Assembly (NCBI GenBank): GCA_038869515.1
Contig: JAWCQZ010000008.1
Coordinates: 1 to 64,000, forward strand
Length of the DNA stretch: 64,000 nucleotides
Reading direction: 5' to 3'
From: JAWCQZ01 sp038869515 [NCBI: Halobacteria archaeon]
Lineage (GTDB): Archaea; Halobacteriota; Syntropharchaeia; JACQPP01
Under the pieces are notes generated by a model. The model made no database searches. It was not told the DNA's origin and saw nothing but the letters and a program-made list of their open reading frames with translations. Both the position numbers and the translations under genes were made by a program. Below, one piece after another: positions 1,647 through 12,325 of the stretch. Positions within the stretch are counted from its first letter, which is position 1, and each line of letters opens with the position of its first letter.

Positions 1647-3587
1647 ATGGCTGACCCCTACCGGCGCGTCCTGCTCGCCGCGCCCCACACCGCCCACGGC
1701 CTCGGGGTCGCCATCGACGTGATCCCCCTCGGGCTCGAATACATCGCGGCCTACATCGAGCCCCACGTGGACGAGGTCGCGGTGATTGACATGGCGAAGG
1801 AGAAGAAGGAGTTCCCGCGCATCCTGAGGTCGTTCAAGCCCGACCTCGTCGGGGTCGCCATCCACAGCGCGGGGGAGCACTACAAGGGACTCGAGATGCT
1901 GCGGCAGGTCCGCGACTACGGCGTCCCCTCGGTGGTGGGGGGCTACCACGCGACCTCGTTCCTGGAGCGGCTCTTCCCCCACGCCGACATGCTGGTCCGG
2001 CGCGAGGGGGAGGAGACCTTCAAGGAGATTGTCCAGGGGAGAGACCCGAAGGAGATTCTCGGGCTCTCCCACGTCCAGTGGACGGGGGGGAACGGCCACG
2101 GCGGCAACGGCCATGAGGGCAACGGCCGCGGGGAGTGGAGGACGTTCCACAACCCCGACCGCCCCTTCATCAAGGACCTCGACTCCATCCCCTTCCCCGC
2201 CCGCCACCTGCGCCGCTACAAGTACTCCATCCACTGGGGCGCAGACCGCGCCCGAGACATCATCACCTTCTCGCGCGGCTGCTGGGCGAAGTGCACCTTC
2301 TGCTGCGAGCCGATGATGAGCGAGGCGCGGCAGAGGTTCCGCAGCCCCCGGAACATCATCCGGGAGGTGGACGCCATCGTGGACCACCACAAGGGAAAAC
2401 CGCTCAACGTCTTCATCGTGGACCCGAACCTCGTGGGCAATCCGAAGACCATGGAGGCCATCGTGGACCTGCTCCTGGAGCGGGACCACGACATCATCTT
2501 CGGAGGCCACGCGCGGGCCGACATGATCGCGAAATACCCCGACCTGGTGCGGAAGATGATCCGCGCGGGCATCACGAGTTACGAGATGGGCATCGAGACG
2601 ACCAGCCCGGACCAGTTGAAGAGCGCCAAGAAGGGGATGAAGACCCTTGAATACCACCGGACAGCCGCCGAGAACATCAACCGCTGGGGAGGCTCCAGCG
2701 GGGGGACCTTCGTCATCGGCCTCCCGGGGCAGACCGAGGAGCAGATCAAGGCCTTCCCGGACTACGCGAAGTCCATCGGCCTCCAGGCGACCGCCTACGG
2801 CATCGCGACCCCCTACCCCGGCACCGAGTTCTGGAACGAGTTGAACTCCCGGGGGCTCATCTTCGAGACCGACTGGGAGAAGTTCGACGAGATGCACAGC
2901 ACGTTCAAGGTGGACGGGTTCACCCCCCAGAGGCTGGAGGAGCTCGCCACGTTCAACATGGCTCGCTTCTGGGGGATGGACACCTACATCGAGCAGGAGC
3001 GCATCCGGATGGTCCGCACCGGCCGGAAGCAGAGCCTCGCCCGCTTCATCGGCGCGCAGGTCTGGGGCGTCACCTTCGCCAGCACCGTGGGCGGCCGCCT
3101 CCAAGGTGACCGGCTCGTCCGGCACGCCCGGGTCGCCCTGGAGGGGTACATCACCCCCCGCGTCGAGGAGTACACCCGCCGGGTCAAGCTGAACGACGTG
3201 GTGGAGATGCGCCGCTTCCTCAGAATCCTCGGAGAGCAGAAACTCCAGATCACGACCCGCCACGAGGGCAGGCCCGTCATGAGCCTGGTCGTCAAGACCA
3301 CCCCGACCAAGGTCGAATACATCAAGACCGTCGCGGGGCAGGAGGAGGACGCCACCCTCCACTTCTCCCTCGACATCGAAGATCTGGAGGCCCGCCCCGG
3401 CAGGCTCGCCCTCGTCCGCAAGATGCTCGCGAGCAACCGGGGCCCCGGCCGCCGCCGCGCCCTCGCGCGGCTCGTGGTCGCGGGGCTCGTCGAAGTGGCG
3501 GCGGAGAAAGGAAGAAAGATGATGGAGAAGGCGGGCCGGGGGAGGTCGGCCGAGCGCGGGGTCCAGATGCCGACCCCCTGCGCCTAA
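1647..3587 (+). CDS. Cobalamin-type (class B) radical SAM enzyme
   Basis: A 646-residue protein. Residues 1-145 form a B12-binding-like Rossmann domain (DLVGVAIHSAG, PSVVGGYHAT), but the DxHxxG cobalt-ligand motif is not visible. The radical SAM core carries the 4Fe-4S cysteines C212, C216 and C219 in 'SRGCWAKCTFC', followed by GGTFVIGLPGQTEE typical of the barrel. A Gly/Asn/His-rich linker sits near residue 150. The layout resembles BchE/HpnJ-type enzymes that modify lipids or other hydrophobic substrates; archaeal GDGT ring synthases belong to the same superclass. The substrate cannot be assigned. The last ~150 residues are a separate C-terminal region. It is convergent with the next operon, with overlapping ends. 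Confidence 0.8.
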   Translation: MADPYRRVLLAAPHTAHGLGVAIDVIPLGLEYIAAYIEPHVDEVAVIDMAKEKKEFPRILRSFKPDLVGVAIHSAGEHYKGLEMLRQVRDYGVPSVVGGYHATSFLERLFPHADMLVRREGEETFKEIVQGRDPKEILGLSHVQWTGGNGHGGNGHEGNGRGEWRTFHNPDRPFIKDLDSIPFPARHLRRYKYSIHWGADRARDIITFSRGCWAKCTFCCEPMMSEARQRFRSPRNIIREVDAIVDHHKGKPLNVFIVDPNLVGNPKTMEAIVDLLLERDHDIIFGGHARADMIAKYPDLVRKMIRAGITSYEMGIETTSPDQLKSAKKGMKTLEYHRTAAENINRWGGSSGGTFVIGLPGQTEEQIKAFPDYAKSIGLQATAYGIATPYPGTEFWNELNSRGLIFETDWEKFDEMHSTFKVDGFTPQRLEELATFNMARFWGMDTYIEQERIRMVRTGRKQSLARFIGAQVWGVTFASTVGGRLQGDRLVRHARVALEGYITPRVEEYTRRVKLNDVVEMRRFLRILGEQKLQITTRHEGRPVMSLVVKTTPTKVEYIKTVAGQEEDATLHFSLDIEDLEARPGRLALVRKMLASNRGPGRRRALARLVVAGLVEVAAEKGRKMMEKAGRGRSAERGVQMPTPCA

Positions 3588-4585
3588 GCGGCGGGGGCCT
3601 GCGTTTTTCCGCCTCTTGACGCGGCCGGGGGTCTCTTCTCCAGTTTGGCCCAGAACCATCCCGCCGCAGCCCCGAGCGCCAGGAACGAGGCCAGTTCGTC
3701 GAGCAGCAGCATGAGGTCCAACTGCGACGTCGCCGCCGGGCTCTGGAGCCACGGGATGAGGACGAAGATGCCCCACGCGACCCCGGCGAGCACCACCCCC
3801 TGCTTCACCGGGCCGCCCGCGAGGACGCGGCGCGCCCCGAGGAAGGAGAGGCCGAAGGGGATTGCATAGAGCCCCTCGACCGCGCCGAGCATCCCCATGG
3901 CTGCCGCCAGGCTCCCCCCGGGCCCCTCGAAGGGGAGGAGGAGGAGCCACGTCAGCGCCCCGTGGATGCCTCCGAAGACCGGGGCGGCCAAACCGCCCGC
4001 CAGGAGCCCGCGCTTCGCCTCGGCGGCCGGCAGTTTGTTGAACGCCACGGCCGCGAAGGCGGCGAGGCCGAGGACCACCGAGAGGCTGAGGACGTTCCCG
4101 ACGACCGAGAGGAGGGGGTCGGGCGGGGGACCGGCCGCCCCGGGCTGCGCGGTGGTCGCGAAGAGGACGTAGGCCTCGGCCGGGGCGTCGCCGGGCGCGC
4201 CGCCCCCCGGAAGGGGGGTGTTGTCAATGACGAGGTGGTAAACGCCGGGCGTTTCGACCCGGAAGTTGAGGTCGGCCCGGGCGGCCCTCAGTTTCACAGC
4301 GGCGGGCCCGGCGTCGAAGGGGATCCCGGAGGCGAGGGCGGCCCGGTAGGCCCCGAACTGCGCCGAGTCCATGTAGAGGATGTCCAGGTTTCCTTTGGTG
4401 CGGACGACGCTGGCGACGATCTCCTGGCCCGCCTGGCCGGTGAAGTTGGCCTCCCAGTAGGCGTCGGCCGGGACCGGCTTCAGGCCGGGGGGCGCGAAGA
4501 AGTAGAGCTGCACGTGGGGCCCGTTCGCGACGGCGGGGGCGGCGAGCAGCAGCGCCACGAGCAGCGCCGGAAGGGCGCGGGCCAT
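3584..4585 (-). CDS. Exported domain plus five-helix membrane protein
   Basis: A 333-residue protein beginning with a signal peptide (MARALPALLVALLLAAPAVA). Residues 22-145 form a beta-rich exported domain that looks like the emp24/GOLD or pre-peptidase class: KGNLDILYMDSAQF, then PGVYHLVIDNT near the end. About five hydrophobic segments follow (roughly 155-180, 192-212, 218-242, 252-272, 278-300), then a basic Lys/Arg tail. It is the last gene of the long minus-strand operon; its ATG at 4585 overlaps the preceding stop as TGATG. The function is unknown. The context suggests a partner of the surface lipoproteins and oxidase-like protein upstream. Confidence 0.7.
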   Translation of the reverse strand: MARALPALLVALLLAAPAVANGPHVQLYFFAPPGLKPVPADAYWEANFTGQAGQEIVASVVRTKGNLDILYMDSAQFGAYRAALASGIPFDAGPAAVKLRAARADLNFRVETPGVYHLVIDNTPLPGGGAPGDAPAEAYVLFATTAQPGAAGPPPDPLLSVVGNVLSLSVVLGLAAFAAVAFNKLPAAEAKRGLLAGGLAAPVFGGIHGALTWLLLLPFEGPGGSLAAAMGMLGAVEGLYAIPFGLSFLGARRVLAGGPVKQGVVLAGVAWGIFVLIPWLQSPAATSQLDLMLLLDELASFLALGAAAGWFWAKLEKRPPAASRGGKTQAPAA

Positions 4586-5169
4586 CAGGCGCCCTCCAGG
4601 CGGGCGGCGCTGAGCCGGGCGAACGCCTCCAAATCGCCGAACGGAGTCCGGTTCGAGTCGTGGGTGAACGCCACCAGGAGGCTCCGGCCCTTGAGGGCCG
4701 CGACATAGGAGGCGGAGCGCCCCCGGTTGTCGCAGAGGAGGTTCTCGGCTCCCAGGGCGAGTGTGGAGCGGTTCGGGCAGAGGCCTTCGGGGAAGGAGGC
4801 GATGTAGTTCCGGTAGGCCGCCTCCGCACGGCCGGAGGTGTTGAAATCGGCGACCTGCACGTGGACGAAGCGGGAGCGGTCCTCCGTGAGGTAGGGGAGG
4901 TCCTCGAAGCGCTCCGGCGCCACGCCGAGTTCCGACGTCAGGAACCCGGGGTCGTAGACCGCGGGCTCGACCGGAGCGTAGCCCTCCGGGAGGGCTCCGG
5001 GCGGGAGCAGGTAGCGGGGCGGCTCGGCAAGCCTTCCGGCATCGGGCGAGCCGGGGGCGGAGGTGGCGGCGGGCGGCGTGGCCGACGGGCCGGAGCAGCC
5101 AGCGAGAAGGACGAGGGCCGCGGCCGCGGACCACACCCAAAGCGATTGCGGGGCGATGGAACTCTTCAC
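4585..5169 (-). CDS. Lipoprotein, paralog 1
   Basis: A 194-residue protein with a signal peptide ending in a lipobox (LLAGC, Cys near 25) and a Pro/Ser/Ala-rich linker, so it is probably membrane-anchored by lipid. The mature part is about 140 residues and shares with the lipoprotein at 6464-6997 the blocks 'PPRYLLP', 'AVxDP', 'TLALG' and 'CDNxG'. Its two remaining cysteines (in 'GLCPN' and 'LLCDN') match cysteines in the paralog and could form a disulfide. No known domain is recognised. It overlaps the preceding gene by four bases (ATGA) and the next by one, so it is translationally coupled. Confidence 0.75.
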   Translation of the reverse strand: MKSSIAPQSLWVWSAAAALVLLAGCSGPSATPPAATSAPGSPDAGRLAEPPRYLLPPGALPEGYAPVEPAVYDPGFLTSELGVAPERFEDLPYLTEDRSRFVHVQVADFNTSGRAEAAYRNYIASFPEGLCPNRSTLALGAENLLCDNRGRSASYVAALKGRSLLVAFTHDSNRTPFGDLEAFARLSAARLEGA

Positions 5170-5894
5170 GGCCGCCCCCCCCGGTTTCCCCGCGGCGGGA
5201 CGAGCGACGCCGCCGCAACCGCCGCAGCCGCCGCCACCGCCGCTCCGAAGCCTGGCTGGGTCGGGGGGGAGGGCGAGGCAGAAGCGACGGCGGGCACGAG
5301 CCCGGACGAAGAGCCGGCGGAAGAGGGGGGCGCGGGCGAGGGAGAACCGGACGCCTCGGGGATTTGGACCTGATGGAATCTCCAGGCGCCCTTCTGCATC
5401 ACTCCATCGTCATGCCCGCTCATGGCGTAAAAACTGAAGACCGCCTGGCCGGAGCCGGAAGGGGGGGCGGTCCACAGGAACCGCCACACCGGGCGGGGGT
5501 CCGACGCGGGCCGGATGTAAGTCAGCACCGGGAAGTCCCGGACGACCTGGACGCCCGTGACCCGCACGAGTTCTGAATAGTTGAGGACGCGGGTCTCGTC
5601 GCCGGAGGCCTCAAGGGTTCCCCGGTCCACCGTCAGGACGAAGCGGGAGACGGGGCCCCCGTGGGGCGTGACCTCGAGCGCCATCTCATACTTCCGGCCG
5701 GGGGTGTAGGAGTCCGGGGCGTCCGCCAGCCGGGCCTCCTGGAGGGGCTCGGGGGCGGGGGCCGGACAGAGGTGGCAATCGGGGAAGAGGATGCCGGGGA
5801 AGGGATGGACGATTCCCCCATTCCCTTCCGCGGTCGGGACGGCAAAGAGTCCCGCGGCGCACAGGGCGGCGATGAGGAGGAGGCGCGACGCCAT
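5166..5894 (-). CDS. Reeler-like surface protein with PGF-CTERM tail, paralog 1
   Basis: A 242-residue protein with a signal peptide (residues 1-24). The mature N-terminus has a CxxC ('FPDCHLCPAP'). The core, about residues 60-175, has the reelin-domain/choice-of-anchor-V pattern: YTPGRKYEMALEV, SRFVLTVDRG, then W-R-F-L-W-T-A-P-P and VFSFYAMSG. A Ser/Pro/Ala-rich stalk leads to a PGF-CTERM signal (QPGFGAAVAA, hydrophobic stretch, then RGNRGG), which archaeosortase A uses to anchor surface proteins. It is the second of two adjacent paralogs; the sister is at 5895-6467. Confidence 0.8.
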   Translation of the reverse strand: MASRLLLIAALCAAGLFAVPTAEGNGGIVHPFPGILFPDCHLCPAPAPEPLQEARLADAPDSYTPGRKYEMALEVTPHGGPVSRFVLTVDRGTLEASGDETRVLNYSELVRVTGVQVVRDFPVLTYIRPASDPRPVWRFLWTAPPSGSGQAVFSFYAMSGHDDGVMQKGAWRFHQVQIPEASGSPSPAPPSSAGSSSGLVPAVASASPSPPTQPGFGAAVAAAAAVAAASLVPPRGNRGGRP

Positions 5895-6467
5895 TCATCT
5901 CCGCTTCGATTGGACCGCCCATAAGCCGACCGCGACAAGGACGGCGAGGGCGGCCGCCGCTTCGAACCCCGGAGTGGGCCCAGGGGCCGCCGGAGCCCCC
6001 TCGGGAACCGCGACCCGCCGGGTCCACCAGGCATCCCGCCCCATGACGCCGTCTCCGAAGCCGCTCATGGTGGTGAAGGTGAATGTGGCGTTGCCCGATC
6101 CCGCCGGGGGGGCCGTCCAAGCAAACTTCCAGACCGGTCTCCCGCCGGAGAATGCGCGACTGTAGGTGATGAACGAGGAGTTCACGACCTTGACGTTCTC
6201 GTCGGCAGAAGAGAGGACACCCTTGTCCACGCCGAGGACGAAGCGGGAGACGAGGCCGTGGTGGGGGATGACGTAGAGGGCCATTTCGTAGCGCTCTCCG
6301 GGGAGGTACCCGGCCGGAGCCTCGAGGGTCGAGACCTGGAGGGGCTGGGGGCCCGGCTCCGCGCACCCCGGGCAGTCGGGAAAGAGGGGCCCGATGGCCG
6401 GGTTGGCAATTTCGGCCGCAGAGGTCGCCGCCGCCAGGAGCAGAGTGACGAGGAGGACCGGCCTCAT
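5895..6467 (-). CDS. Reeler-like surface protein with PGF-CTERM tail, paralog 2
   Basis: A 190-residue protein with a signal peptide and a mature N-terminal CxxC ('FPDCPGCAEP'). The reelin-like core has PGERYEMALYV, SRFVLGVDKG, W-K-F-A-W-T-A-P-P and FTFTTMSG. The stalk is short, and the C-terminus TPGFEAAAAL...QSKRR is a compact PGF-CTERM sorting signal. It matches the protein at 5166-5894 along its whole length. In related domains of cytochrome-linked proteins this position often holds CxxCH; here the His is absent in both paralogs. Its start overlaps the stop of the upstream lipoprotein by four bases. Confidence 0.8.
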   Translation of the reverse strand: MRPVLLVTLLLAAATSAAEIANPAIGPLFPDCPGCAEPGPQPLQVSTLEAPAGYLPGERYEMALYVIPHHGLVSRFVLGVDKGVLSSADENVKVVNSSFITYSRAFSGGRPVWKFAWTAPPAGSGNATFTFTTMSGFGDGVMGRDAWWTRRVAVPEGAPAAPGPTPGFEAAAALAVLVAVGLWAVQSKRR

Positions 6468-6997
6468 GCCAGCAGGGCGAGGGTCCTCCGCGCGTGCTCC
6501 ACGAGGTCCGGGGGAGGCGAGACAGGGTCGTGGGTGTGGGCCGCCACGAGGCGACTCCCCGAGAGCGCCACGACCAGGTAGAACTCCGAGGTCACCTGGC
6601 CCGCGTTGTCGCAGGCGAAGTGCTCGACGCCGAGGGCGAGGGTCGTGCGCGCGGCGCAGGGGGCGTAGGTCGCGAGGTAGCCGGGGTAGGCGTCGTAGGC
6701 CCGGCGGGCCTCGGGGGCTCCGGAGAACTCGAGGACCTCGATGTGGTCAAGGTAGGTGTCGTTGCGGGTCTTGTAGACGTGGTTCTCGTAGCGGACCGGG
6801 GCGATGCCGAGATACCGGGCCCAGATGGCAGGGTCCACCACGGCTGCCTGGGCGACTCCGTAGTCGGGGAGGAGGCTCGCGTTGGGCAGGAGGTAGCGGG
6901 GCGGGGAGTCGTAGGCCGCGGGCAAAGGCGCGGGGCTCTGGGCGCAGGCGGCGAGGAGGACGAGGGCCGCCCCCGGGAGGAGGCCGGCGCGTCTCAC
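6464..6997 (-). CDS. Lipoprotein, paralog 2
   Basis: A 177-residue lipoprotein with lipobox LLAAC (Cys near 18) and a short linker. The mature domain is homologous to the protein at 4585-5169: SPPRYLLP, VVDP, APCAARTTLALG and HFACDN line up with it. The gene order lipoprotein, Reeler-like, Reeler-like, lipoprotein gives a mirror-like duplicated block. It overlaps both neighbours by four bases. No enzyme motif is seen; a binding or scaffold role at the outer face of the membrane is the likely reading. Confidence 0.75.
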   Translation of the reverse strand: MRRAGLLPGAALVLLAACAQSPAPLPAAYDSPPRYLLPNASLLPDYGVAQAAVVDPAIWARYLGIAPVRYENHVYKTRNDTYLDHIEVLEFSGAPEARRAYDAYPGYLATYAPCAARTTLALGVEHFACDNAGQVTSEFYLVVALSGSRLVAAHTHDPVSPPPDLVEHARRTLALLA

Positions 6998-7494
6998 CGG
7001 CCCCTCCGCGGAAAGAGGGCAAGGGCCGCGGCGAGGGCCGCCGCAGCGGCCAGGGCCTCGAATCCGGAAGTGGAACGGGAGGCGGGGGAAGGGACGGGGG
7101 ACGGGGGCGAGGCCGAGGGGGGCGCCGGACGGTCCCCCGCGGCGAATCGGACGCTCTCACTCCCGAAGGTCATGGTGTAGTTGCCCGACGGCCCTGAGAC
7201 GACGGCGTGGCACTCAAGGGTCCGCCTCTCGAGAGGGGCGAGCTCGAGGCGCTCCGGGCAGAATCCCATGTCACCTCCCGGGCCCGATACTCCGAAAGAG
7301 ACCGGGCCTCCGGCCGGTTCATCCGCGGTATTGACCAAAACCACGCGGAAGAAAAAGCCCCCGCCGTGGGGGGTGGCGGTGAGGTTCTGGAACCGGACGT
7401 CCGACCATGCGGCCTGGGCCGTCCCCGTCAGAAGCAGCAGGAGCGCTGCGGCGACCGCCGAAGCCGCCATCCCGGGGTGTTGGGGCCTTCTCAC
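6994..7494 (-). CDS. Surface protein with PGF-CTERM-like tail, paralog B
   Basis: About 166 residues if translated from the GTG at 7494, which overlaps the upstream stop as GTGA and supplies a basic n-region (MRRPQ) to the signal peptide. The alternative ATG at 7470 gives 158 residues but no charged n-region. The mature domain of about 90 residues is a beta-sandwich-like module (WSDVRFQNL, FRVVLVNTADE, GFCPERLELAPLERRTLEC, YTMTFGSESVRF), with two cysteines shared with the upstream paralog. A Pro/Ser stalk follows, and the tail STSGFEALAA...FPRRGR is a PGF-CTERM variant with SGF for PGF. Confidence 0.7.
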   Translation of the reverse strand: MRRPQHPGMAASAVAAALLLLLTGTAQAAWSDVRFQNLTATPHGGGFFFRVVLVNTADEPAGGPVSFGVSGPGGDMGFCPERLELAPLERRTLECHAVVSGPSGNYTMTFGSESVRFAAGDRPAPPSASPPSPVPSPASRSTSGFEALAAAAALAAALALFPRRGR

Positions 7495-7997
7495 GGCGGC
7501 CTCCGGAGACTGGCAACCGCGAAGGCCGCGGCGGCGAGGGCCGCCAGGGCCCCCGGGGCCCCGAAGCCCGGCGTCGGGGGCGGCGGGGAGGCGGGCTGCG
7601 GCTCTGCGGGCGCGGAGGGCGCGGGCGGCCCCTCTCCGGCGGTGAACCCGAGCCGCTCGCTCTGGAAAACGAGGGTGTATCGTCCCGGGGCCGGGATCTC
7701 TGCGCGGCACTCCACGGTCCGCTTCTCGAAGGCCGGCAGGCTCAGGAAGTGGCGGCAGAACTCCCGCTTGCCCGATTCTCCCTCCAGTTCGAAGGAGACG
7801 TTGTTGGCGTTGGTGGTCCCCTCGGTGTTGACCGCCAGGACCGAGAAGCGGTAGGCGAGGCCCGACTCGGGCTCGGCCGCCAGGTCCCGGAATTTGACGT
7901 CCGGCCAGTGGGCCTGGGCCGCGGCAGCGAGGGCCAGGAGGAGCAGAGTGACCGCCGCCGGGGAACTCAACGCTCCTCCGGAGGGTCTCGGGGCCAT
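7491..7997 (-). CDS. Surface protein with PGF-CTERM tail, paralog A
   Basis: A 168-residue protein: signal peptide to about residue 29, then a CARDB-like or sandwich domain (WPDVKFRDL, YRFSVLAVNTEG, REFCRHFLSLPAFEKRTVEC, YTLVFQSERLGF). Two cysteines are conserved with the paralog at 6994-7494. A Pro-rich stalk and a clear PGF-CTERM (TPGFGAPGALAAL...SLRRPP) follow. The ATG at 7997 lies inside the 3' end of the oxidase-like gene, overlapping it by 31 bases, so expression is coupled to that gene. The domain could bind the periplasmic-side face of the membrane protein; this is inference from position only. Confidence 0.75.
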   Translation of the reverse strand: MAPRPSGGALSSPAAVTLLLLALAAAAQAHWPDVKFRDLAAEPESGLAYRFSVLAVNTEGTTNANNVSFELEGESGKREFCRHFLSLPAFEKRTVECRAEIPAPGRYTLVFQSERLGFTAGEGPPAPSAPAEPQPASPPPPTPGFGAPGALAALAAAAFAVASLRRPP

Positions 7998-9643
7998 ATC
8001 CTCCAAGTGTGGATGAAGAAAAGAATGAGGGAGGCGGCAAGGGCCAGGGCGAAGGGCGTCCCGAAGCGGGTGACGTCGAGGGCCGCCAGATAGGGGAGGT
8101 ATCCCCCGGGGCCGTAGGGGTTGGAGGCGGTCTGGAAGACCCCGCCACCGGCGTAGCCGCCCCAGGCGTAGAAGAGGAGGAAACCCCCCAAGCCGATGTT
8201 CAACAGCCAAAAGTGAGCTGCGACCAGCCCGGGGTTCCACATCCTCGAAGGAGGAGGGGGCGGGCCTGCGGACGGGAGGGGGGAAGGGGACGGAGTCCCC
8301 CCTCTTCCAGGCGACAGTCGGGGGACGAGACCGTAGAGGAGGCCGAAGGCGATGCCGGAGAGCCCTCCGAGCATCACCATGTGGTCCTTCACCACCACCT
8401 GCATGATGGTGAACTCGTGGCCCGAGCGGACGAGCCAGAAGTAAATCGGGTCGAGGGAGAGGATGCCCTCGAGCGCGAGCCCGGCAGCGAGCCACGCCAT
8501 CCCCGCCCGGAGGAAGCGGGCCGCCCACGGGTCGCCGGGCAGCCTCCGCCAGAGCGCCGCCACAGCCGCAGCGAGGCCCGCCGCGAAGAGGAGGGCGAAG
8601 GGGAGGGCGAACCGGAGGACCCCCTGGCTCACTTCGAAGGGGTGGAACCGCTCCGCCTCGGTGAGGTCCCCGGTGGCGCCCACGAAAGCCGCGCGGCCCT
8701 GATAGGCCGCGACCGCAAGAAACGCCAGGAGCCCCAGGAGCCCGAGATTGTAGAGCCAGAGGAACACCCGGAGGCCCCGGGCGGGCGGTGGGCGGTTTTC
8801 CAGGAGGGCCACGCCGAACAGGACTGCGAGGAGTCCGCCCCCGAGCCACCCCATGACCGTCATGTGGCTGTGGACCGAGGCGAACATGGATTCGAAGTCG
8901 AACCCCCCTTCCTTGAGCCAGCGGAACATGGGCGGGCTGCCGTAGAGGCCGCCCAGGAGGATGCCCGCCACCAGCCAGAGGGCGGCAACCTTGAGCATCC
9001 ACTTCAGGGCCGGGTGCTCGACAGGCCCCTCCTCGGGAACGGCAGCCAGCCCGGCGAGCCGCGCGGGGAGGGGGAAGCGCTCCCGGGCGCGGTTGGCGAG
9101 GCGGGCGAGCGACGGCCGGAGGCCGAAGGTGAGCCAGACGTTGGCCGCGAACGCACCGGCCCCCAAGAGCACCAGAACCGCGAACGGTATGCCCCACCGG
9201 AGGAGGGAGAGGAACGCCTCGTAGGGCAGGTAGGCGTTGCCGGGGCCGTACAGGGCGGCTCCCGGGTCGGGGCTCTCCCGGCCCGCGATGAGGACCCGCG
9301 CCCCGGCCACCCCGCCCGCGAAAAGGGCCGCCATCATTCCCGCCAGGCCGACGTTGAGGAGCCAGAAGTGCCACGCCGCCAGCCGGGGGCTGTAGAGGGG
9401 TCGGGAGAAGACGCGGGGCAGGACCCAGTAGACCAGGGCGAAGAGCGCGTTGGAGAGCCACCCGAGCAGGTTGATGTGGCTGTGGACCGAAGCGAAGACC
9501 AGTTCGAAGTCGTGGCCGGTGTGCTTGAGGGCGCGGAATCCGGGGTTCGTCGCGAAGAAGCCGCCCATGGCGACGCCCACCACGAGCCAGAGGAGGGAGG
9601 CGAGGAGGAAGGGCCGGGGGCCCGGCGGGGCGTCGGCGGTCAT
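7967..9643 (-). CDS. Haem-copper oxidase subunit I-like membrane protein with three tandem repeats
   Basis: A 558-residue, about 12-helix protein. Three repeats of four helices align by eye: residues 12-180, 213-366 and 379-550. Each begins W-L-x-x-G, reaches a His-bearing second helix (VHSHINLLGW with H54/H56; VHSHMTVMGW with H258/H260; VKDHMVMLGG with H421), then a third helix FWLLNVG / LWLYNLG / FWLLNIG and a fourth near 'LRxxxPFA'. The His helix plus Y-x-x-LPR resembles helix II of cbb3-type subunit I and small four-helix relatives of that family. Canonical CuB motifs (HPEVY, HHMF) are absent, so oxygen reduction is not assured. A Pro/Ser insert lies at 444-466. It probably binds haem. 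Confidence 0.7.
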   Translation of the reverse strand: MTADAPPGPRPFLLASLLWLVVGVAMGGFFATNPGFRALKHTGHDFELVFASVHSHINLLGWLSNALFALVYWVLPRVFSRPLYSPRLAAWHFWLLNVGLAGMMAALFAGGVAGARVLIAGRESPDPGAALYGPGNAYLPYEAFLSLLRWGIPFAVLVLLGAGAFAANVWLTFGLRPSLARLANRARERFPLPARLAGLAAVPEEGPVEHPALKWMLKVAALWLVAGILLGGLYGSPPMFRWLKEGGFDFESMFASVHSHMTVMGWLGGGLLAVLFGVALLENRPPPARGLRVFLWLYNLGLLGLLAFLAVAAYQGRAAFVGATGDLTEAERFHPFEVSQGVLRFALPFALLFAAGLAAAVAALWRRLPGDPWAARFLRAGMAWLAAGLALEGILSLDPIYFWLVRSGHEFTIMQVVVKDHMVMLGGLSGIAFGLLYGLVPRLSPGRGGTPSPSPLPSAGPPPPPSRMWNPGLVAAHFWLLNIGLGGFLLFYAWGGYAGGGVFQTASNPYGPGGYLPYLAALDVTRFGTPFALALAASLILFFIHTWRIWPRDPPEER

Positions 9644-9670
9644 TCGGGTCGGGTTGGGGGCGGAGGCTCT

Positions 9671-10369
9671 TTAGGGCTTCTTCCGCAGGAGCGGGACCGC
9701 CGCCACGAGGAGGGCCACCGCTGCCAGGGCGATGGCCGCGTAAGCGGGGCCCGAGGCCGCCGAAGCGGTCTGGAGCGCCTGGGCGTTGGCGGTGCTCACC
9801 TGAGAGTAGGACTGCTGGAGCTGGGAGAGGCCGGCTTGGACTGCGGAGAGATTGACCTCCAGCCTCGGCCTCTCCACGAGCCAGGTCTGGGAAGCAGGAG
9901 TCTCGCTCCCCGGGGCGCCGGTCCAGGAAACCACCTTTCCGTCCTGATACCGCTGGTGAACCCGCCAGGAGACCGTGACCGGTTTCGCTCCGTTCCGGCC
10001 GCTGAATTTGAACTCCTCGAACTCGCCGGGAGCGATGGTGTTCCCCCTCCAGGTGACGCGGGCAAGGGCGACCTCTCCGGGATGGGCGTGCTCCCCCTTT
10101 TCATGGGTCCCCTCCCCGTGCCTGGGCTCGGTCACGACGGTCCAGCCCGGCTGCTTCAGCACCCGCTTGACCTCGACCTCGTGTGGAACTTCGAGGGTGA
10201 CCTCGACGGTCGGGACGGGCTCCTCCGTCGGGACCCGCAGGAGGTAGGTCTCGAACCGGTCGGTGACCGACTCGGCGGGGGAGACCACCGCGTGGCCGAG
10301 GACCGGAGCCTGGAGGACTGCGATGATGCCCAGACCGAGGAGGGGCGGAAGCGCACGAATTGATTTCAT
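9671..10369 (-). CDS. YcnI/DUF1775 copper-binding-type protein, paralog B
   Basis: A 232-residue protein. The signal peptide would be cut before His (VLG/HAVVSP), giving the N-terminal His that YcnI proteins use, with a conserved Glu and Trp, to bind Cu(II). HAVVSPAESVTDRFETYLL and the following VPTEE fit the DUF1775 start, and VTWRGNTIAPGEFEEFKF fits the second half. A His-rich loop (residues ~90-103) lies inside the domain. About residues 165-200 are Ser/Ala/Gln-rich, and a C-terminal helix with LLRKKP anchors the protein. It overlaps the upstream paralog by four bases. Confidence 0.8.
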   Translation of the reverse strand: MKSIRALPPLLGLGIIAVLQAPVLGHAVVSPAESVTDRFETYLLRVPTEEPVPTVEVTLEVPHEVEVKRVLKQPGWTVVTEPRHGEGTHEKGEHAHPGEVALARVTWRGNTIAPGEFEEFKFSGRNGAKPVTVSWRVHQRYQDGKVVSWTGAPGSETPASQTWLVERPRLEVNLSAVQAGLSQLQQSYSQVSTANAQALQTASAASGPAYAAIALAAVALLVAAVPLLRKKP

Positions 10370-11010
10370 TTATTCCGGCGTGCCAATCCGACTCCAGCCA
10401 GGACCAGAGCAACCAGCCCGAGAGCCACCCCGGCGATACCCGCGGGGGAGGAGGTCGAACCGGCGGCCCGGCTCGCCTCGGCCTGGGCCTGGGAGGCCTG
10501 GGTCTGGGCCTGCTGGGCCTGCGAGGTCAGGGCGTCGAGGCGGGCGTCGAGAGAGGACTTGGCCACCACCTTCACCGATGGGGCCTCCTCCTTCTCCCCC
10601 TCCTTGTGGACCTCGGCAGTTCCGGTCTGGTGGAGCTCCACGTCGAACTTGTGGGTCCCCGCCGCGGCGGGGGTCTCGGCCATGAAGCGGAGGGCGATGA
10701 GGTCGCCGCTCCTGTAGGTGTTCCTGGGCGCCTCCCACTTGATTTCGCTGATGCGGTCGCCGACTTTCTTCGTCTCGGTGGCCCACCCGGCGGGACGCTC
10801 GACGAACTCGACGTGGAACACGGGCCTCCCGGAGGCGTCCTTGGGGATTTTGAGCTCCACATGTTCCAGAGTCCCGGTCACGGGGACCCAGAGGGTGAAG
10901 GTCTCCTTGCGGTCGGTCACGGCCTCGCCGGGGGTGATGGAGGGGTGGCTGGCGGAAGCCGCAGCCACGGCGAGCAGGAAGAGGACCGGGAGCGCGAAGG
11001 ACAATCTCAT
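10366..11010 (-). CDS. YcnI/DUF1775 copper-binding-type protein, paralog A
   Basis: A 214-residue protein and the first gene of the operon. After the signal peptide the mature start is near SHPSITPGEAVTDRKETFTL, equivalent to the His-led start of paralog B, though a Ser may precede the His. The domain continues with VPVTG, a beta-rich middle and 'DLIALRFMAET'. A coiled Ala/Gln/Ser stalk (residues 150-185) precedes a C-terminal membrane helix ending ARRNK. In bacteria DUF1775 genes sit beside CopC/CopD or cytochrome assembly genes; here they lead an oxidase-like operon, which supports copper handling by analogy. A TATA-like box lies about 27 bases upstream. Confidence 0.8.
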   Translation of the reverse strand: MRLSFALPVLFLLAVAAASASHPSITPGEAVTDRKETFTLWVPVTGTLEHVELKIPKDASGRPVFHVEFVERPAGWATETKKVGDRISEIKWEAPRNTYRSGDLIALRFMAETPAAAGTHKFDVELHQTGTAEVHKEGEKEEAPSVKVVAKSSLDARLDALTSQAQQAQTQASQAQAEASRAAGSTSSPAGIAGVALGLVALVLAGVGLARRNK

Positions 11011-11854: not shown

Positions 11855-12325
11855 ATGGTGGAGAACCGCCACCTCCTGGAGGAGCGCGGGCTGTGCGCCT
11901 TCTGCGCGGCCAACCTTACGGACGAGGAACTCTGGAATGTTGTTTTCTACGCTGCGACTCTCCGGACTTCTTCGGAGAATGTGGCTGCGGGGGGACGGCT
12001 GTACGGAAAGCATTGCCTCTCGTGCCACGGTGAGCAGGGTGAGGGAAAACAACCGCTGCGACGGCTGACGCTGCTTGGAAGAGCGGTGAATACCAGCGAT
12101 GCGGAGCTTGAGGCGGAGGTGGCATCGGAACACCATGTGCGGCGCCTTTCCGGTGCCATCCTGAGCCCGGCGGAGCGGCAGCAGGTCGTGGACTACCTTC
12201 GCTCCATCGTCTTCGGCGAGACGCCCAGGCGACCGGAGACGAATTCGCCTCTCGCGGCGCTGGCCCTGGCAGCTGTCGCTGCGGCAATAACCGCTGCGGC
12301 TAAGGCGTGGAAGAGAAAGCGATAA
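11855..12325 (+). pseudogene. Truncated c-type cytochrome (second domain of a probable dihaem protein)
   Basis: The reading frame gives 156 residues. A class I cytochrome c domain spans about 40-125, with the haem site C54-LS-C57-H58 after GGRLYGK, and a C-terminal helix (about 130-150) followed by WKRKR. Upstream of it, LTDEELWNVVFYAATLR (residues 21-37) looks like the last helix of a preceding cytochrome c domain, whose haem-binding part is missing, and there is no signal peptide. Codon use is also less G/C-biased at third positions than in neighbours. It is best read as a 5'-truncated dihaem cytochrome; a functional monohaem protein exported by another route is less likely. Confidence 0.55.

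What the first reader, a model, noticed from the sequence alone, without database searches (positions are those of the whole stretch)
7967..9643. Oxidase-like membrane protein with three visible sequence repeats
Seen: a 12-helix protein in which three blocks of about 170 residues align by eye (WLxxG start, H-x-H helix, FWLLN-like helix, RxxxPFA helix). H54/H56, H258/H260 and H421 lie at the equivalent position. Known: haem-copper oxidase subunit I has 12 helices in threefold pseudo-symmetry, but the symmetry is usually structural and not readable in sequence; small single four-helix cbb3-I-like proteins also exist. Inference: this gene looks like three such modules fused and could be close to the form from which subunit I arose, or a haem carrier without oxidase activity.
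Basis: partly seen in the sequence, partly recalled or inferred. Interest (0 to 1): 0.8.

Follow-up and report, generated by a model that had tools for sequence, protein, structure and literature searches.

The report
Tripled oxidase-like haem protein in archaeon
An archaeon carries a membrane protein made of three clearly repeated copies of the unit from which respiratory oxidases are built; it keeps most of the haem-holding histidines but not the oxygen-reducing copper site, and it appears to have been tripled separately from other tripled relatives, so it is more likely a living parallel to how oxidases arose than their ancestor.

Summary
Three blocks of 170-205 aa share 35-41% identity, z 14-21 against local shuffles; two CcoN and one COX1 give -1 to 6.6. 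The protein passes the Pfam COX1 and DUF2871 cut-offs. Block 1, modelled alone (pLDDT 86), fits the third unit of cbb3 oxidase (Z 15.5, 2.4 A over 162 residues). It lacks the CuB His-His pair, and Lys419 stands at the high-spin haem ligand. Mapped onto CcoN, H56/H258 and H421/H54 would form two bis-His haem b sites, one at a place empty in oxidases; H260/K419 is a degenerate third. Single 4-helix genes are widespread; doubles and triples occur, including bacterial triples with all six histidines (L023, L128). Tree tests reject shared module order with L023/L128 (p 0.002, 0.007) and weakly with oxidases (p 0.034, one of five tests); shared insertions agree. So 'ancestral form' is not supported; 'haem protein without oxidase activity' is the best reading, haem binding being inferred. 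The ring of three blocks could not be modelled, and archaeal genomes could not be surveyed. Pei et al. 2014 (recalled, text not held) already described single- and three-unit homologues: a new variant of a known kind.

The parts
7967..9643 (-). P0002, 558-aa three-module membrane protein of the haem-copper oxidase superfamily
9029..9643 (-). module 1 (residues 1-205), HxH = H54/H56
   Evidence: structure model pLDDT 86.3 matches cbb3 residues 299-463, Z 15.5
8519..9028 (-). module 2 (residues 206-375), HxH = H258/H260
7970..8518 (-). module 3 (residues 376-558), KDH = K419/H421, with a proline-rich insert between its second and third long helices
9476..9484 (-). codons of H54-S55-H56, predicted haem ligands
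   Evidence: position 54 aligns with H345 and H60 of CcoN
8864..8872 (-). codons of H258-S259-H260, predicted ligands
8381..8389 (-). codons of K419-D420-H421; Lys at the place of the high-spin haem ligand of oxidases
9671..10369 (-). DUF1775 (YcnI-like) protein, upstream in the same run of genes
   Evidence: Pfam 68 bits, cut-off 25
10366..11010 (-). diverged paralogue of the DUF1775 protein, first gene of the run
   Evidence: local score 167, shuffle maximum 66; no Pfam DUF1775 hit of its own
7491..7997 (-). small secreted protein, overlaps the 3' end of P0002 by 31 bases; its end resembles PGF-CTERM below the cut-off
   Evidence: 20.2 bits, cut-off 24.5
6994..7470 (-). paralogue of 7491-7997; no Pfam or NCBIfam family
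6464..6997 (-). lipoprotein-like secreted protein, paralogue of 4585-5169; no family
5895..6467 (-). choice-of-anchor V domain protein, paralogue of 5166-5894
   Evidence: NCBIfam 44.5 bits, cut-off 42
5166..5894 (-). paralogue of 5895-6467; choice-of-anchor V below the cut-off
   Evidence: 34.1 bits, cut-off 42
4585..5169 (-). paralogue of 6464-6997; no family
3584..4585 (-). last gene of the run, 333 aa; no family; secreted part then membrane helices by eye
11855..12325 (+). monohaem cytochrome c (CxxCH), on the other strand upstream of the run; possible redox partner
   Evidence: Pfam Cytochrom_C 38.2 bits, cut-off 21.3

Best explanation
P0002 is a non-oxidase member of the haem-copper oxidase superfamily in which three 4-helix units, of the kind that exist elsewhere as single genes (DUF2871-like), are fused head to tail in one chain. 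It most likely folds like an oxidase subunit I. Each unit offers the first His of its HxH to one neighbour and the second to the other, so that haem b is held between units. Two such bis-His sites are complete (H56 with H258, H421 with H54); the third (H260 with K419), which in oxidases is the catalytic haem/copper site, is degenerate. The haems would lie near the outer face of the membrane, so the protein would pass electrons sideways to or from secreted partners (the copper-binding DUF1775 protein of its operon, or the nearby cytochrome c) rather than reduce oxygen. Shown: triple repeat, family, predicted fold of block 1, ligand residues, absence of the CuB His-His pair. Inferred: haem binding, which residues pair, electron transfer, partners, operon. 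The triplication arose separately from the bacterial triples L023/L128 and probably from the oxidases.
For: Pfam COX1 63.7 bits (cut-off 34.8) and DUF2871 32.5 bits (27.4); CcoN is the best PDB match by sequence, 1.4e-9, with block 1 aligning to all three CcoN units. Block 1 model: ranks 1-48 of the 50 Foldseek rows shown (278 matches in all, 2 with E <= 0.001) are entries of oxidases, NO reductases or supercomplexes holding them, ranks 49-50 are not; the 50 VIA rows shown are all of that kind. HxH in 38 of 39 modules that I fetched from profile hits. Pairing rule: on the alignment, with CcoN ligands as recalled, H60 (unit 1) and H345 (unit 3) fall in the '54' column and H347 in the '56' column; H207 of unit 2 falls at '56' when counted from the conserved Pro 20 residues on (motif printed). 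Low-spin haem = 56 of unit 3 + 54 of unit 1; the b3/CuB site = 56 of unit 2 + 54 of unit 3. The rule is cyclic, so it does not depend on which block is called unit 1. Separate triplication. Gene run.
Against: No haem has been shown. The full-length model failed (pLDDT 42.9, two-row alignment), so the ring of three blocks and the His distances are not modelled. By phmmer alone, unit 2 of CcoN aligns with H207 next to, not on, position 56. Blocks 2 and 3 score only 30 and about 26 bits (in two pieces) against a profile of single modules, block 1 100. The free tree gives the three blocks no supported clade; block 1 is most identical to L010; block 2 has a long branch and odd composition. No close archaeal relative was found: the first genome scan gave none and the 80 loci of the second have bacterial titles. 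The DUF1775 neighbour could point to copper rather than electrons.
Confidence: 0.6

Rival explanations
1. It is a copper-handling membrane protein: the HxH pairs and the H260/K419 site bind copper passed on by the DUF1775 protein and its paralogue, and it serves copper import or cuproprotein loading, as proposed for YcnJ in Bacillus.
For: Gene run with a DUF1775 protein and its paralogue; DUF1775 of YcnI binds Cu(II) and often neighbours copper genes (PMC8424229, passages). Both printed sequences have a His shortly after a signal-like stretch. The L023 triple lies next to SCO1.
Against: Family and fold are those of a haem-binding subunit, and the HxH columns coincide with haem ligands of CcoN (roles recalled). 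Single modules show no shared neighbourhood: the largest neighbour cluster covers 11 of the 80 loci L009-L088.
Confidence: 0.15
2. It is a gas-binding or NO-handling protein: the degenerate H260/K419 site holds a high-spin haem that binds NO or O2, as proposed for NnrS-type homologues.
For: Single modules fused to DUF1858 (L132, L134, L137) and a weakly matching three-unit candidate near nirK on a Halomarina plasmid fit a nitrogen-oxide link, which Pei et al. proposed (recalled).
Against: None of the window neighbours scanned is a nitrogen-oxide gene; Lys is not a usual proximal ligand.
Confidence: 0.15
3. It is an ancestral or transitional form on the line to oxidase subunit I.
For: Readable threefold repeat, haem ligands in the right columns, Pfam COX1 membership; no supported clade of the three blocks in the free tree.
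Against: Insertions shared within P0002; one-clade test; block 3 with the third unit of oxidases p 0.034, which would not survive correction for five tests. Block 1 with unit 1 of oxidases was not tested.
Confidence: 0.07
4. A degraded gene with no function.
For: K419 and loss of the W62 and G27 equivalents in block 3.
Against: Open over 558 codons with strong third-position GC (0.90), in a tight run of genes, five of six ligand positions kept.
Confidence: 0.03

Closest known systems
HCOH proteins, single-EU and three-EU homologues of haem-copper oxidases (Pei, Li, Kinch, Grishin 2014, Protein Sci 23:1220; content recalled, text not held; seen only as cited in papers)
   Same: 4-helix unit, single or in three copies, haem ligands kept, no oxidase site
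   Different: As recalled, most three-EU members keep two histidines (one haem). P0002 has five of six, and its repeat is more readable (z 14-21) than in the four three-unit homologues or candidates tested here (L006, L129, L130, L131: z -0.8 to 10.2)
DUF2871 (PF11070)
   Same: the whole protein passes the family cut-off, best stretch in block 1
   Different: the model is a single 134-residue unit; P0002 holds three
CcoN, cbb3 oxidase subunit I
   Same: predicted fold of block 1 (Z 15.5), HxH columns
   Different: no CuB His-His pair, Lys for H345, extra His pair at the site without cofactor; ccoN model 38.8 bits against a cut-off of 583
L023 and L128 bacterial three-module proteins found here
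   Same: three modules in one chain, HxH-type helices
   Different: all six histidines kept; joining P0002 blocks 2 and 3 to their modules 2 and 3 is rejected
YgdD homotrimer model (PMC4602095, passages)
   Same: 4-helix unit proposed to trimerise like the oxidase core
   Different: separate chains, not a fusion; not compared with P0002 here

Membership tests
Haem-copper oxidase superfamily (fold, PF00115) | sequence match over the curated cut-off and the subunit I fold | tested here: met
   63.7 bits, cut-off 34.8; block 1 model Z 15.5, 2.4 A over 162 residues to 3mk7_A; whole chain not modelled well
Haem-copper oxidase / NO reductase catalytic subunit | CuB (or FeB) ligands: one His in helix VI and a His-His pair in helix VII (recalled) | tested here: not met
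   H260 is at the helix VI place, but one search lists all His of P0002 and none are neighbours or lie in the third long helix of block 2; the CcoN pair is printed
Haem-copper oxidase / NO reductase catalytic subunit | proximal His of the high-spin haem (H345 of CcoN) | tested here: not met
   K419 in that column if block 3 is unit 3
cbb3 oxidase CcoN (TIGR00780) | NCBI curated cut-off 583 bits | tested here: not met
   38.8 bits
Three-EU HCOH | three homologous 4-helix units in one chain | tested here: met
Three-EU HCOH | two conserved histidines, one haem (recalled as typical) | tested here: inconclusive
   five of six positions are His in P0002; L131 keeps only the 56(1)/54(2) pair, L130 that pair and 56(2)
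DUF2871 (PF11070) | cut-off 27.4 bits | tested here: met
   32.5 bits, two stretches
NnrS | match to an NnrS Pfam family | tested here: not met
   no NnrS row at E <= 1
Haem b protein | binds haem | not testable with these tools
   ligand columns only

The most novel reading that the evidence does not exclude
P0002 and the L023 type represent repeated, independent fusions of a homotrimeric 4-helix b-type cytochrome whose three identical clefts each held a bis-His haem. L023 keeps all three sites; P0002 has begun to break the ring by replacing one ligand (K419) at exactly the place where oxidases built their copper site. If so, the step from a symmetric haem ring to an asymmetric oxidase can be re-run in the laboratory from living proteins, and P0002 carries haem at a position empty in oxidases.
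Probability: 0.35. Interest if true: 0.8.

Novelty: new variant of a known kind. Interest (0 to 1): 0.55.

Why it matters
The threefold symmetry of respiratory oxidases has long suggested an origin by triplication of a small haem protein, but in the CcoN and COX1 proteins tested here it is hardly readable in sequence. Here single, double and triple forms are found in living genomes, triplication appears to have happened more than once, and the ligand pattern predicts how many haems each form should bind. That makes the origin of the oxidase site testable by expressing a few small proteins and counting haems.

Tried and rejected
Tried without result: P0002 in viral contigs, in plasmids at E <= 1e-3 and in the first genome scan; the three-block alignment in viral contigs; the P0002/L023 pair in viral contigs. 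Full-length structure with two rows failed. Deep alignment A5 put L023 in the wrong register and the single modules on block 1, so it was not used. P0002 against 79 genomes of the phylum of G007 (L040, titled Elusimicrobia) and 79 of the phylum of G006 (L029, titled Planctomycetota) gave matches at E <= 1e-9 in 2 and 5 genomes; no row spans three blocks, and three matches in frames of 770-818 aa were not looked at. Gene neighbourhood of single modules showed no common partner. Paper searches for the origin or triplication of subunit I, HCOH, DUF2871 and NnrS listed no paper that I recognised as describing this protein; I read listings and passages only. Pei et al. is not held.

Two planned tree tests were not finished: block 1 with module 1 of L023/L128, and block 1 with unit 1 of an oxidase. 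The viral fold library was not used.

Considered and rejected: plain CcoN or COX1 (ligands missing); plain NnrS; chance repeat (shuffles); ancestor of oxidases (tree tests, weak).

Biases: loci L009-L088 were found with a pattern that demands H[SA]H, so their HxH says nothing about conservation. The 39 modules were picked by me among the rows, mostly the best-scoring single frames, and the profile was itself built largely from H[SA]H rows. Block edges of the oxidases were set by me from profile hits. Groups for the AU tests were partly chosen after the tree was seen, five tests were finished without correction, and long branches are involved. The tree dropped columns filled in under 50% of rows, so the insertions are separate evidence; Trp19 is not.

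Full report
1. Observation. The reading frame of the finding lies on the minus strand, 7967-9643, 558 codons. The plus strand is also open there, but as a charged low-complexity sequence; the minus frame has the codon pattern and family matches of a gene. Three blocks (residues 1-205, 206-375, 376-558) align with local scores 238, 238 and 201, far above 500 full and 500 window shuffles each. With the same method, two CcoN proteins, one oxidase-like protein of a survey genome (L151) and one COX1 give z between -1.0 and 6.6; four three-unit homologues or candidates (L006, L129, L130, L131) -0.8 to 10.2; P0002 13.7 to 21.2; the bacterial triples L023 and L128 15.9 to 23.8. The repeat is real and unusually readable, though not more so than in L023 and L128.

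2. Family and fold. Pfam COX1 (63.7 bits, cut-off 34.8) and DUF2871 (32.5, cut-off 27.4) are both passed; the ccoN model is hit weakly (38.8 bits, cut-off 583). By sequence in the Protein Data Bank, CcoN is best (1.4e-9; 5 sequences at E <= 10), and block 1 aligns with each of the three CcoN units, best with the third. A model of block 1 from 86 rows (pLDDT 86.3) fits residues 299-463 of CcoN with Z 15.5 and 2.4 A over 162 residues. Of the 50 Foldseek rows shown (278 matches, 2 with E <= 0.001) the first 48 are entries of oxidases, NO reductases or supercomplexes that hold them, as are the 50 VIA rows shown. The full-length model failed (pLDDT 42.9) and is used only for its helix pattern.

3. 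Ligands. In the alignment, H54 falls on H345 (unit 3) and on H60 (unit 1) of CcoN, and H56 on H347. With the ligand roles of CcoN as I recall them, the low-spin haem uses position 56 of unit 3 and position 54 of unit 1, and the haem b3/CuB site uses position 54 of unit 3 and position 56 of unit 2 (H207; one search places it one residue off, and I place it at 56 by counting 20 residues to the conserved Pro, motif). The rule is cyclic. Applied to P0002 it gives H421/H54 (like the low-spin site), H56/H258 (a site without cofactor in oxidases) and H260/K419 (the catalytic place). The CuB pair HH of helix VII is absent: P0002 has His only at 41, 44, 54, 56, 92, 210, 258, 260, 334, 409, 421, 477 and 545. 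K419 is AAG, two changes from a His codon. Arg-rich loops after the second long helix suggest that the HxH end faces outward (read from the sequence).

4. Relatives. In these, profile hits fall in frames with one module, except L023 (three modules, 429 aa, HAH, HFH, HAH) and L019 (two adjacent one-module frames). L023 lies beside SCO1 and a cytochrome c. Of 61 genomes of the phylum of G008, 48 have a match at E <= 1e-12 (oxidases included); 5 (G008, G010, G019, G028, G037) hold a double-module frame of 292-313 aa, 10 hold two modules about 1.1-1.3 kb apart, and 4 (G008, G014, G023, G032) two directly adjacent ones. Of 59 genomes of the phylum of G003, 15 have a match and 2 (G003 itself, G111) a triple with three matches at E < 1e-34 (one frame each). 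The G111 triple (L128) has HVH, HFH, HVH. HxH is present in 38 of 39 modules fetched from these surveys, IxH in one (selection caveat in Tried and rejected). In 14 control genomes DUF2871 rings only in Haloferax volcanii, below the cut-off.

5. Evolution. In a tree of 65 modules (139 columns) the three P0002 blocks are nearest to one another by path, but form no supported clade; by identity block 1 is closest to the single module L010 (39%). Holding them as one clade gives a likelihood 0.73 higher (p 0.547), while joining block 2 to the second modules of L023, L128 and two doubles is rejected (p 0.0024), as is joining block 3 to the third modules of L023 and L128 (p 0.0071); joining block 3 to the third unit of oxidases gives p 0.034; the six L023/L128 modules as one clade p 0.069. 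In an 86-row alignment all three P0002 blocks share a Trp at position 19 (Tyr in 81, Phe in 1, Trp in 1 of 83 others), residues L39, G43, F46 in a stretch that is a gap in 81 of 83, and P140 and R149 in a stretch that is a gap in 81-82 of 83. The simplest reading is a triplication within the P0002 line.

6. Setting. aIF5A, GatD, PAN and CDC48 mark the window as archaeal; GC 70%. No whole genome is held, so archaeal relatives could not be surveyed. P0002 is the third gene of a tight ten-gene run (11010 to 3584, overlaps or gaps of at most 31 bases), probably an operon, that contains a DUF1775 protein and its paralogue, then three further pairs of paralogues of secreted proteins. Three of the ten genes match no family in Pfam and NCBIfam, and one more (6464-6997) none. 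DUF1775 of Bacillus YcnI binds Cu(II) (PMC8424229, passages). A cytochrome c lies on the other strand (11855-12325).

7. Function. Most likely a non-oxidase haem b protein with two bis-His haems near the outer membrane face, working with secreted redox or copper partners. Haem binding and partners are inferred. Copper handling and gas binding are the main rivals.

8. Novelty. Single- and three-unit homologues were described in 2014 (recalled). New here, as far as searches show: an archaeal triple with five of six ligand positions kept and a strongly readable repeat, bacterial triples with all six, and tests that indicate separate triplications.

Noticed in passing
L143:917-5966, L156:484-5673, L144:933-6499 (genomes G026, G035, G018): In three of three genomes scanned: cytochrome c, a 4-helix oxidase module (GG type, e.g. 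LAHAHINLIGG), a sulfatase-modifying-factor-like protein, a second 4-helix module (GWVEM type) and a 4Fe-4S protein (FixG_C only in L143): a cbb3-like cluster whose catalytic subunit seems replaced by two separate units. Ten of 61 genomes show two modules so spaced.
   Followed up: partly
window 3584-11010, minus strand: Run of ten genes built of four paralogous pairs around the tripled protein.
   Followed up: partly
L138, L139, L140, L141, L142: Double-module fusions of 292-313 aa; in L138-L141 the second module keeps only the second His (IYH), in L142 the first module does (ITH).
   Followed up: partly
L132:325-1290, L134:835-1851, L137:382-1272: Single oxidase module fused to two DUF1858 stretches.
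   Followed up: partly
L006:532-1743: Haloarchaeal hypothetical protein beside a cbb3/COX1-type gene and near nirK on a Halomarina plasmid; three weak module hits (22.5, 12.3, 14.4 bits) but no Pfam family.
   Followed up: partly
L008:2702-3064: Single-module gene on a contig of the viral collection.
   Followed up: no
window 8243-8320: Proline-rich low-complexity insert in block 3 (about residues 442-467).
   Followed up: no
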